A stretch of 64,000 nt of DNA. Source: Liolophura sinensis. Its lineage: Eukaryota > Mollusca > Polyplacophora > Chitonida > Chitonidae. Shown here one piece after another: positions 6,001 to 8,694 of this stretch. Position 1 is the stretch's first letter. Each line of letters opens with the position of its first letter. The stretch is taken from positions 7,974,324 to 8,038,323 of the forward strand of contig NC_088299.1 in NCBI RefSeq assembly GCF_032854445.1. The letters are read 5' to 3'. The translations under genes were made by a program, and so were the position numbers. The notes beneath the pieces are model-generated. The model had not been told where the DNA came from and did no database searches. It was given only the letters and a program-made list of their open reading frames with translations.

Positions 6001-8694
6001 TAAACCCAATCTTTCCCACAAACACTTTCTATTTTCATTTGCTTTATTTATTTACAGTTTCTCCCTCCAAAAGGACTGGGGTGTCATTTGAGTAAAATTA
6101 TTATCTAACATTAATGGTTTGCATAAATGATTACTTTTCCATTTTCTACGGAACCGCGTGGCGTACATTTCTCTCTCTTTTTATATTTATGACACAGAAA
6201 AATTATTTTGTCTATTTTAAGAAACATACAGAGACTTAACGCTAGAGAGCACATATGCGTTACAGTCAAATACATCATTGGAGTGACAGACTGATTTACA
6301 TTTGATTCAAACTCAACCCTTTCTTCAAAAGGTTTCTTGTAGATTTTCTTTCTTCTTGTAAAGATTTTTCGTTCAGGCTCAATACTATCCTATTTATAGT
6401 ACAGCAGGAGTTCATTCTAAAGACCTCAGGCCACAACCCAGTACTCCATCGTAACTGTTAACATTCCACATTCCATACTTTTTCCCTCTTTAAGAAGTGT
6501 ATTACTTATCAGTGGCATTTACTTACTAATATCACCGGTTTGTGGGTCGAAATCGAAAGCGTAGATTTTTCTCGGAATTGAATCAATGTAATAAAAGATG
6601 GCGTTATCTGGGCTCCAGGTGAGTCCGTTAGACAGACTGACGTCAGTCAATCGCTTCACCAGCCGTCCGTCTGTTTCTAGGGAGTAGAGGGCAGCACAGC
6701 GCTGTGGGGTCTCCTCCAGGGGACGACGTGTCTTCTGCATACTGCCTGTGGTCAGCCAGCATTTTAATCATATTTATGTCTTTATAATTTCTTCAAAATT
6801 ATCATAATTCAGATTTAACGACGAAGATGATAATTACGATGACGATGATGACAAAAAATAACAATGTTGATGATTATGATGCTGATGTTTGATGAAGATG
6901 ATGCCAATGATCGCGGCGATGATGATGACAATGACGAAGACGGCGACGGCAGCTGTGGTAGCTGCAACAGCTGTGGCCCAGGGAGTAGTAATTATATCAT
7001 AGTGATGACGATGGCAATGATACTTATGGTGACGACGATGATGAATACGACAACTTCGGCAACAATGATTATGAGTGTGATGACGTTGTTGGTGATAATG
7101 ATAATAATAGTGATGATTGTGTTGATAATAATGGTAATGTTGGTGATAGCAACGACGTTGGCAGTAACGATGAAGATGATAAAGACGGTATTGGTTAATA
7201 AGGATAACAGTGATGAAAATTCATGAGGATGGTGATATTATTCGGTGTAACAACCAGTTCAGGATCGATCAAAAACTTTATTCGGTACCGTATATTAACA
7301 ACAAGTTATTTTTACCTGCCCACAGTCGCCCAGTGACGTCACATTTAGCATCGTTAATCCGGAACGCCTTCGATTCCTTGTCCTCTGCTATCACCTTGAT
7401 AGCCTTTGAGTCCCAGTCAAGGTGACAAATTGACAAATTCTGACCAACGATCAGACCGCCAGATTTCCGAGGTATCACAAATCCGACATTTCCATCTAAA
7501 GGCGTTGTGATGAAAGAGAGGTCATACTCGATTAAATAGATTCAGAAATGTACTATTCTATATACATTTCATGTTCTCGCTAAGGGTGGTCTAATGGTTA
7601 TATTGTCCGCCTCGAAGTCCGGAGACCGCTGTCATATCAATATCTTTAAATATGATACTTGTTGCTGGGTCTCTTGGTGCTCAGAACGCTTGATCCGGTG
7701 TCAGTATAATGCTAGTAGTTCGTCCGGTGTCAGTATAATGTCGCTGGGTGGAGTGTACCCATGTGCACCTTAAAAATGAGACTTACCAGTATGTACCTTA
7801 GCACGAAACATAATTTTTTATGACACTCACCGCTATGTAACTTTTGTACGAAACTTAGTAATATGCACCTTTCTATACCACACCTGCTAATATATGCCGT
7901 TTCCTCCCACTATAATACTTCCCACAGTCGTCACGTGAGTGATATATTCTTGAGTACGACGTAAAACACCAATGAAATAAATCAATAAATGAATACCAAT
8001 TTACGTCATGCATGACATTTAACATTATGTACATGAGTTTTTATGACGCTATCACGAACATTTGCATTTGCATGACACTTTGCATGAATATGTACGTTCA
8101 TATGACACTTACCATTATGTACCTTTGTATGACACTCACCAACATGTACCTTTACACGACACTTACCAATATGTACCTTCCTGTCACACTTACCAATATG
8201 TAGCTTTGTATGATACTTACCAATATGTGCCTTTGTATGATACTTACCAATATGTACCTTCATATGACTCTTACCAATATGTACCTTTGTATGACACTTA
8301 CCCATATGTAGCATTGTATGATACTTGCCAATATGTACGTTTATATGACAATATGTAGCTTTGTATGATACTCACCAATATGTACCTTTGTATGACACTT
8401 ACCAATATGTACCTCCACATGACACTTACCAATATGTACCTTTGTATGATACTTACCAAAATGTAGCACTGTATGATACTTACCAATATGTACCTTCATA
8501 TGACACCTACCAATATGTACCTTTGTATGACACTCACCAATATGTACCTTTGTGTCCTCCCCAGTGATGGAGTCCCATTTATGAACATCGCCACAGTTAA
8601 TGTCCACATGATACAGTGAATGACACCTGTCATCCCAATGTGGACCCTCCCCAGTCGTCATGGCAACGTTCTTGAGCACCACGGAGACATCCAT
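3016..8694 (-). CDS. RGN: Regucalcin (SMP-30/gluconolactonase family), complete, 5 exons
   Basis: Exons (minus strand order): 8694-8538, 7495-7316, 6745-6527, 4423-4289, 3227-3016. They total 903 bp, 300 residues plus TAA; human regucalcin is 299. All four introns are phase 1 with GT-AG ends, and every join restores family sequence: KVHI|DGNVGF, GRLWAG|SMQK, TGDIS|NQREV, PETG|KTILD. The start is the ATG at 8694, giving [10 protein letters not shown] then GEGPHW. Family knowledge: a six-bladed beta-propeller that binds a divalent metal and hydrolyses gluconolactones, also implicated in Ca2+ handling. Expected metal ligands are present: Glu16 (GEGPHW), Asn152 (SNGLTW) and Asp203 (LPDGM); Asn100 in RINDAK fits the substrate side. 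The C-terminal block TSCCFGGKE and the ending [10 protein letters not shown] are diagnostic. Introns hold a (TG)n, a 168 bp array, a GAT-rich tract and a splice-donor minisatellite. Confidence 0.96.
3285..3373. repeat. (TG)n microsatellite in regucalcin intron 4
   Basis: About 44 TG units with a single TC interruption. In the sense of the gene it is (CA)n, ending about 57 bases upstream of the exon 5 acceptor at 3228. Intronic CA repeats near splice sites can bind hnRNP L in other animals; a role here is only a possibility. Confidence 0.95.
4012..4178 (-). mobile_element. SINE family A, 5' (tRNA-related) part, diverged
   Basis: Contains CGGTGGAAACCCACAACTATCCGC, GAAGCCAGCATG, GTAAGAGGCTCTTGGATATC and the tRNA-like end CCACGGAGGCCC. 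This is the reverse complement of the SINE A head and middle. It lies in regucalcin intron 4. Confidence 0.65.
4836..5481. repeat. Tandem array, about 168 bp unit, about 4 copies, in regucalcin intron 3
   Basis: The block beginning GAAATCATATCTATTTAT recurs at 4872, 5043 and 5376, with a diverged start at 5208 (spacings 171, 165 and 168). Each unit also carries GGGAAATGGCAATCTGGTAACC, ATGACAACTGCGGAAAT and CCACCAAAAATTAAAAC. A partial copy precedes the first. The copies are diverged, so this is an old satellite-like array. Confidence 0.85.
6816..7200. repeat. GAT/ATG-rich low-complexity tract in regucalcin intron 2
   Basis: Degenerate GAT/GAC/AAT triplets run for nearly 400 bases between exons 3 and 2. 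The open frame across it is Met/Asp-rich simple sequence and not a gene. Confidence 0.85.
7895..7985 (+). mobile_element. SINE family A 3' end in regucalcin intron 1
   Basis: TTTCCTCCCACTATAATAC, CAGTCGTCACGTGAGTGATA, TTCTTGAGTACGACGTAAAA and CACCAATGAAATAAATC match the SINE A 3' domain and tail. Its insertion interrupts the decayed part of the adjacent 27 bp array. Confidence 0.75.
8101..8552 (-). repeat. 27 bp minisatellite carrying the regucalcin exon 1 splice donor
   Basis: The length is exactly 16 units of 27 bp plus one of 20 bp. The plus-strand unit is approximately ACTTACCAATATGTACCTTTGTATGAC. On the gene strand each unit reads ACAAAGGTACATATTG then GTAAGT, GTGAGT or a variant. The exon 1 end is ACAAAGGTACATATTG|GTGAGT (donor at 8537), so the last 16 coding bases and the donor are the first unit of the array. 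Further donors fall at 8510 (GTAGGT), 8483, 8456, 8429, 8402 (GTAAGT) and 8375 (GTGAGT). The 20 bp unit near 8341-8360 lacks its donor. Decayed copies continue to about 7755. Confidence 0.93.

What the first reader, a model, noticed from the sequence alone, without database searches (positions are those of the whole stretch)
8101..8552. Regucalcin exon 1 ends inside a 27 bp minisatellite of duplicated 5' splice sites
The last 16 coding bases of exon 1 and its GTGAGT donor are the first unit of a 17-unit array running into intron 1. Six more donor-like sites follow at 27 bp steps (8510 GTAGGT; 8483, 8456, 8429, 8402 GTAAGT; 8375 GTGAGT). Several match the donor consensus as well as, or better than, the assigned one. 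Because 27 is a multiple of 3 and the units are open, use of each next donor would add nine residues (about GKCHTKVHI) without breaking frame. This makes a potential series of regucalcin isoforms at a propeller loop after residue 51.
Basis: partly seen in the sequence, partly recalled or inferred. Interest (0 to 1): 0.88.

Follow-up and report, generated by a model that had tools for sequence, protein, structure and literature searches.

The report
Splice-donor minisatellite in chiton regucalcin gene
In a chiton, a DNA repeat has grown out of the end of a coding segment and copied its splice signal many times; the repeat is real and other genes of the animal show the same pattern, but the evidence suggests it is mostly spliced away rather than making a designed set of protein versions.

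Summary
On the minus strand, regucalcin exon 1 (8694-8538) ends inside a 27-bp array (8087-8553, 17.6 copies). The seven donors named exist, have equal predicted U1 pairing, and donors 2-7 stay in frame. The genome is the chiton Liolophura japonica.

The isoform-series reading is not supported. A tandem paralog 10.3 kb away carries the same array, but its first repeat is 25 bp, so donors 2-8 shift the frame and hit a stop. Donor columns are no more conserved between units than the others, and units that cannot be reached in frame are equally stop-free.

The pattern recurs. Two other regucalcin paralogs have unrelated arrays grown from other exon ends. Of 40 donor-motif arrays fetched from one chromosome, 10 start at exon ends with Pfam or PDB support and 6 more probably do. 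Periods are multiples of 3 in 6 of 13 cases, near chance.

This matches amphioxus 'mirages', boundary duplications reported not to disturb splicing. Best reading: neutral arrays seeded at donors, first donor mostly used, leaky in-frame isoforms possible in this gene. No RNA was examined.

The parts
8538..8694 (-). Regucalcin (SGL/SMP-30) exon 1, 52 codons plus one base
   Evidence: Translation and splice phase; Pfam SGL 1.3e-21 for exons 1+2; 3g4e 1.2e-14
8087..8553 (-). 27-bp minisatellite, 17.6 copies, seeded by the last 16 bases of exon 1 plus donor
   Evidence: TRF; unit table
8532..8537 (-). First (assigned) 5' splice site GTGAGT
8370..8510 (-). Six further in-frame donor-like sites starting at 8510, 8483, 8456, 8429, 8402, 8375
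8339..8358 (-). Truncated 20-bp unit that brings TAA into frame and ends the in-frame series
8064..8342 (-). Distal half of the array, 3 differences in 279 aligned bases to the paralog (conversion tract or recent exchange, inferred)
7897..7995 (.). Copy of a dispersed repeat element lying within the old array
   Evidence: Several other copies in a BLASTN of 15 kb of the window against 20 kb next to it; element type not classified
7770..7868 (-). Degenerate array units beyond the element
   Evidence: 20-21 of 27 matches, 0 of 1000 shuffles reach 21
7316..7495 (-). Regucalcin exon 2, acceptor TTTAG|ATGG
6525..6701 (-). Regucalcin exon 3 (matched part)
   Evidence: tblastn
4287..4424 (-). Regucalcin exon 4 (matched part)
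   Evidence: tblastn
3040..3225 (-). Regucalcin exon 5 (matched part)
   Evidence: tblastn

Best explanation
A tandem duplication of 27 bp spanning the exon 1 / intron 1 boundary (16 exon bases plus 11 intron bases) probably arose before the two regucalcin copies on this chromosome separated. It then grew and kept turning over by unequal exchange and conversion. Because the exon-proximal donor stays intact, extra copies fall into the intron and are tolerated. It is one case of a class of 5'-splice-site-seeded minisatellites in this chiton, equivalent to the 'mirages' of amphioxus. Most transcripts probably use the first donor; a minor fraction may use donors 2-7 in this copy and add 9n residues, without having been selected for. 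Shown: anatomy, paralog, recurrence, lack of a frame preference. Inferred: age, mechanism of growth, first-donor use.
For: The intron position and phase are ancestral: paralog R3 has the same phase-1 junction without an array, so the exon end seeded the array. R2 carries the same array (91%) with units of 25 bp at positions 1, 5 and 8, which makes donors 2-8 frameshifting, while the R1/R2 exons look constrained (dN/dS 0.25 over 278 codons). Independent exon-end arrays: R5 exon 3 (45 bp x 15.7), R6 exon 4 (61 bp x 13.7). In other genes, 10 of 40 donor-motif arrays start at supported exon ends: GH31 2.3e-13, DUF4457 1.8e-15 and core-2 branching enzyme 6.2e-6; Pol III RPC1 4.4e-9; N-acetylneuraminate lyase 8.4e-4 (Pfam DHDPS only 0.11); ankyrin 8.6e-10, Fe-hydrogenase C 4.9e-13 and HEAT 5.4e-4, the last under Pfam's cut-off; a 'helicase-like protein' 9.5e-19 (Mot1 by recall); OGDH 4.1e-21. 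Periods are multiples of 3 in 6 of 13, P = 0.24 against 1/3; the 44-bp (Pol III) and 52-bp (OGDH) arrays would shift frame at the second donor. Amphioxus mirages are reported not to interfere with regular splicing.
Against: No RNA was examined. All seven donors pair equally with U1, so nothing in the donor itself favours the first. For the human IFI6 gene a paper states that two downstream repeat units are used as donors, so leaky use has a precedent. In the Pol III-like and GH31-like arrays the first donor (GTAAAT, GTATGT) is weaker than the GTAAGT copies that follow. The R1 copy keeps seven full 27-bp units in a row, unlike R2, which a selectionist would read as frame preservation; 6 of 13 is also above 1/3, if not significantly.
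Confidence: 0.75

Rival explanations
1. Functional isoform ladder: donors 1-7 are all used, giving regucalcins with 0-6 inserts of nine residues at the loop between propeller blades 1 and 2 (loop position recalled from the fold), and the frame is kept by selection.
For: Seven consecutive 27-bp units, all in frame, equal U1 pairing; precedent in IFI6.
Against: Paralog R2 out of frame from unit 1; openness equal in unreachable units; donor columns not more conserved than the others taken together; class-wide periods near chance for multiples of 3.
Confidence: 0.12
2. The array is an unrelated satellite that landed next to the exon, and the exon end was captured from it.
For: Exon end and unit are identical in the first copy.
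Against: Whole-genome DNA search found only this locus and its paralog (4 matches, all on C5, counts are lower bounds); the junction is shared with an array-free paralog (VNL|D in R3) and aligns without gap to human regucalcin RVTM|D.
Confidence: 0.04
3. A process aimed at 5' splice sites (transcription, R-loop or U1-linked breakage) seeds these arrays; it is not random duplication with tolerance.
For: 10 supported plus 6 probable of 40 donor-motif arrays at exon ends; 3 of 23 independent regucalcin donors in arrays against 0 of 40 P450/kinase exon ends (Fisher p = 0.045); AGGTGAGT trains 1188 against 418 for the reversed motif; two arrays in what looks like one Mot1/BTAF1 gene.
Against: The Fisher value is fragile: leaving out the window's own event it is 0.12, and counting the two-copy repeat at L055 it is 0.13. 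GGTAAGT trains 1754 against 2516 reversed; AGGTAAGT 551 against 395; 8 against 7 distinct arrays in the first 3.55 Mb of C1. True donors inflate the motif background, so an excess is expected without targeting.
Confidence: 0.2
4. Repeated donors act as decoys or U1 sinks that regulate intron 1 processing.
For: Of 16 unit donors scored in the array, 14 pair with U1 at -10.7 kcal/mol or better.
Against: Donor columns no more conserved than the other 21 together (0.39 against 0.41 bits); no function tested.
Confidence: 0.06

Closest known systems
'Mirages' of amphioxus (Adh3, globins, troponin C, PGBD5)
   Same: Minisatellite-like tandem duplications of exon-intron boundaries with duplicated splice signals; unit 10-72 bp in Adh3; data suggesting that regular splicing is not disturbed; unit turnover by concerted evolution (PMC3087553 and PMC3902484, passages read).
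   Different: Different phylum (mollusc). Amphioxus cases include 3' boundaries and units of 60-160 bp; all cases here are at 5' boundaries, but the genome sample was selected on donor motifs. RNA evidence exists there, not here.
IFI6 (6-16) minisatellite with multiple splice donors, human
   Same: Minisatellite of repeated donors at a coding exon end, with downstream units stated to serve as donors (PMC4526556 passage). The 1995 paper itself was not held; that its unit is 12 bp and in frame is recalled.
   Different: Downstream donors are stated to be used in IFI6; not shown here. Unit 27 bp here; the tandem paralog's array is out of frame.
Intron origin from tandem arrays / AGGT duplication models
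   Same: Tandem duplication that multiplies splice signals (models cited in PMC3087553, passages).
   Different: There a new intron is created; here an existing intron gains extra donors.

Membership tests
Amphioxus-type mirage (exon-intron boundary minisatellite) | Tandem array whose first unit spans a true exon-intron boundary | tested here: met
   the boundary is inferred from homology and phase, not from RNA
Amphioxus-type mirage (exon-intron boundary minisatellite) | Units carry AG/GT-type splice signals | tested here: met
   the exon side is TTG, not AG
Amphioxus-type mirage (exon-intron boundary minisatellite) | Regular splicing is not disturbed | not testable with these tools
   No RNA reads; intact exons and dN/dS 0.25 are indirect
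Amphioxus-type mirage (exon-intron boundary minisatellite) | Length instability / unit turnover | tested here: met
   Turnover: proximal units differ between paralogs (24 of 175) while distal ones are nearly identical (3 of 279); length change between alleles not tested
Amphioxus-type mirage (exon-intron boundary minisatellite) | Occurs in several genes of the genome | tested here: met
IFI6-type alternative-donor minisatellite | Downstream repeat donors are used in mRNA | not testable with these tools
   No RNA reads
IFI6-type alternative-donor minisatellite | Downstream donors keep the reading frame | tested here: met
   Met for donors 2-7 of this copy; not met for donors 2-8 of paralog R2
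Regucalcin / SGL (PF08450) | Match over the family cut-off and conserved exon set | tested here: met
   77.8 bits against 26.3; five exons found

The most novel reading that the evidence does not exclude
In this chiton lineage 5' splice sites are a preferred birthplace of minisatellites, so hundreds of exon ends carry length-variable ladders of donors; some, as in this regucalcin, are in frame and make allele-dependent protein length variants, a standing source of exon-end sliding and new peptide loops.
Probability: 0.15. Interest if true: 0.8.

Novelty: new member of a known kind. Interest (0 to 1): 0.52.

Why it matters
In the papers I saw, boundary-spanning minisatellites are treated as a feature of amphioxus, plus the single human case IFI6. 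Finding the same structure at a number of exon ends of a mollusc suggests it may be a general by-product of tandem duplication in animal genes, and gives a set of natural duplicated-donor experiments for asking how the spliceosome chooses among equal neighbouring donors. RNA-seq for this species already exists, so the question is directly testable. I found no report of mirages in molluscs in the searches: both papers naming mirages are on amphioxus genes, and the one mollusc paper listed (PMC3862624) mentions minisatellites only in a reference title. The library lacks most subscription papers.

Tried and rejected
Rejected: selection on frame (paralog and period tests); satellite insertion as origin (genome search, ancestral junction). 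Donor-motif enrichment against reversed-motif controls gave mixed results, so no targeting is claimed. A control listing for AGGTGAGT arrays (reversed motif) did not complete. A search of the R4 intron-1 array in the genome did not complete. A seventh regucalcin locus (C7:26568547) was not fetched. DERA identity of L110 is recalled and was not confirmed. L097 as polycystin is weak (0.035). L102, L113, L127 and L128 rest on open frame only. No structure prediction was run: the spliced protein is not contiguous in the DNA. Two query slips: protein 6 (L102) was typed without a stop that the frame has upstream, and protein 9 mixes two frames; neither found a family, and no count rests on them.

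Full report
What is there. The window is part of a 609 Mb genome. Its contig count (632), its contig C1 of 96,433,062 bases and its contig C9 of 37,343,639 bases equal the scaffold number, longest scaffold and N50 of the chiton Liolophura japonica in PMC11068029 (passages read). On the minus strand a regucalcin gene (Pfam SGL 1.3e-21; human regucalcin 3g4e 1.2e-14) starts at 8694. Exon 1 ends at 8538 and exon 2 starts at 7495, phase 1. The last 16 exon bases are the first part of a 27-bp array, 8087-8553, 17.6 copies. Donors 2-7 add 9 to 54 residues in frame; donors 8-11, the later ones tested, run into the TAA brought by a truncated unit.

A natural control next door. A second regucalcin copy lies 10.3 kb away on the same strand, with the same array (91% identity). 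The two copies differ by dS 0.083 and dN 0.021 over 278 codons. In this paralog units 1, 5 and 8 are 25 bp long (for unit 1, for the others), and donors 2-8 all shift the frame and stop at residue 60 or 61; two later ones (9 and 10) return to frame but lie behind those stops. The isoform series is therefore absent from a constrained near-twin. The distal array differs by 3 of 279 bases between the copies against 24 of 175 proximally and 11 of 157 in exon 1, which suggests a conversion tract.

Is the open frame meaningful? No. Read in the register of the seed, 0 of 7 reachable units, 0 of 9 unreachable distal units and 0 of 5 proximal 27-bp units of the paralog contain a stop. Over 22 full units the donor hexamer ranks 14th of 27 circular windows by entropy; mean entropy is 0.39 for the donor, 0.23 for the exon side and 0.57 for the spacer.

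Other paralogs. Six regucalcin genes were read; a seventh locus was not fetched. Of 24 donors after exons 1-4, four lie in arrays: R1 and R2 exon 1 (one event), R5 exon 3 (45 bp x 15.7) and R6 exon 4 (61 bp x 13.7). None of the 24 matched starts of exons 2-5 lies in an array, though some starts were located only roughly. R3 shares the intron phase without an array, so the exon end is older than the array. R4 has a separate 54-bp array with GGTAAGT inside intron 1, not at the exon edge.

Other genes. I searched the whole genome for trains of three donor motifs; each answer lists only its first places, all on one chromosome. I fetched about 1 kb at the 5' side of 20 of the 21 clusters that I counted in the list, the 7 further clusters in that and the 13 in that: 40 arrays. 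In at least six (L089, L095, L100, L109, L120, L121) the array filled the stretch and its start was not seen; in L106, L112, L114 and L124 similar units lie further upstream. Ten start at exon ends supported by Pfam or PDB: L092 DUF4457, L096 core-2 branching enzyme, L108 GH31, L103 Pol III RPC1, L104 N-acetylneuraminate lyase (8.4e-4), L116 ankyrin, L118 HEAT (20.4 bits, under Pfam's cut-off of 23.5), L125 Fe-hydrogenase C, L117 SNF2-type helicase, best PDB match a 'helicase-like protein' that I recall as Mot1, L126 OGDH. Six more are probable by open frame or recalled similarity (L097, L102, L110, L113, L127, L128). The other 24 showed no exon that I could recognise or an unseen start. In L096 the exon end lies just outside the TRF limits but repeats the unit. 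L117 and L118 lie 12 kb apart on one strand and, by recalled similarity, both belong to BTAF1.

Frame and targeting. With the three regucalcin arrays, 6 of 13 supported periods are multiples of 3 (P = 0.24 against 1/3); with the probable ones 8 of 19 (P = 0.28). In the Pol III (44 bp) and OGDH (52 bp) cases the second donor would shift frame and only every third would restore it, so I infer that these genes mostly use the first. Control exon ends: I chose 20 of the 99 P450 and 20 of the 138 kinase matches, several of them close paralogs, and read 600 bases at the match end. In 37 of 40 a donor-like GT lies near the match end. None of 40 has an array of three or more copies there; L055 has a two-copy 18-bp repeat at the match end without a clear donor, and L049 one ten bases beyond its match end. 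Against the regucalcins (3 of 23) Fisher's p is 0.045; it is 0.13 if L055 counts and 0.12 if the window's own event is left out, so enrichment in regucalcins is not established. Motif controls are mixed: GGTAAGT 1754 against 2516 reversed, AGGTAAGT 551 against 395, AGGTGAGT 1188 against 418; these are matches, not arrays. By my count of distinct arrays in the first 3.55 Mb of C1 it is 8 against 7 for GGTAAGT. Random seeding plus tolerance is enough; targeting is not excluded.

What is known. PMC3087553 (passages) calls such structures in amphioxus 'mirages': minisatellite-like duplications of exon-intron boundaries, with Adh3 and RT-PCR data suggesting undisturbed splicing, and with length instability. 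PMC3902484 (one passage) adds PGBD5 and troponin C. PMC4526556 (passages) states that human IFI6 uses two downstream repeat units as donors; the original 1995 paper was not held. The present array works like both in layout and meets every mirage feature that could be tested; undisturbed splicing and allele length change could not.

Verdict. The array is real and the frame arithmetic is right. It is best filed as a molluscan mirage, neutral by the tests available, with leaky in-frame isoforms possible but undemonstrated.

Noticed in passing
L117 and L118 (C1:4179498-4192714): Two different exon-end arrays (48 and 33 bp) about 12 kb apart on one strand, apparently in one Mot1/BTAF1 gene (identity partly recalled).
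   Followed up: partly
window 8064-8342 against L005: Distal half of the array is nearly identical between the two regucalcin copies (3 of 279) while the other segments of exon 1 and intron 1 differ by 7-22%, as after gene conversion.
   Followed up: partly
L020:5318-5996: R4 regucalcin intron 1 holds a 54-bp array with GGTAAGT in its units, not starting at the exon edge.
   Followed up: no
window 29625-31274: 46-bp minisatellite, 35.9 copies, 95% matches; context not examined.
   Followed up: no
L103 and L108: In the Pol III-like and GH31-like arrays the first donor (GTAAAT, GTATGT) is weaker than the GTAAGT copies that follow, a good test of donor choice.
   Followed up: no
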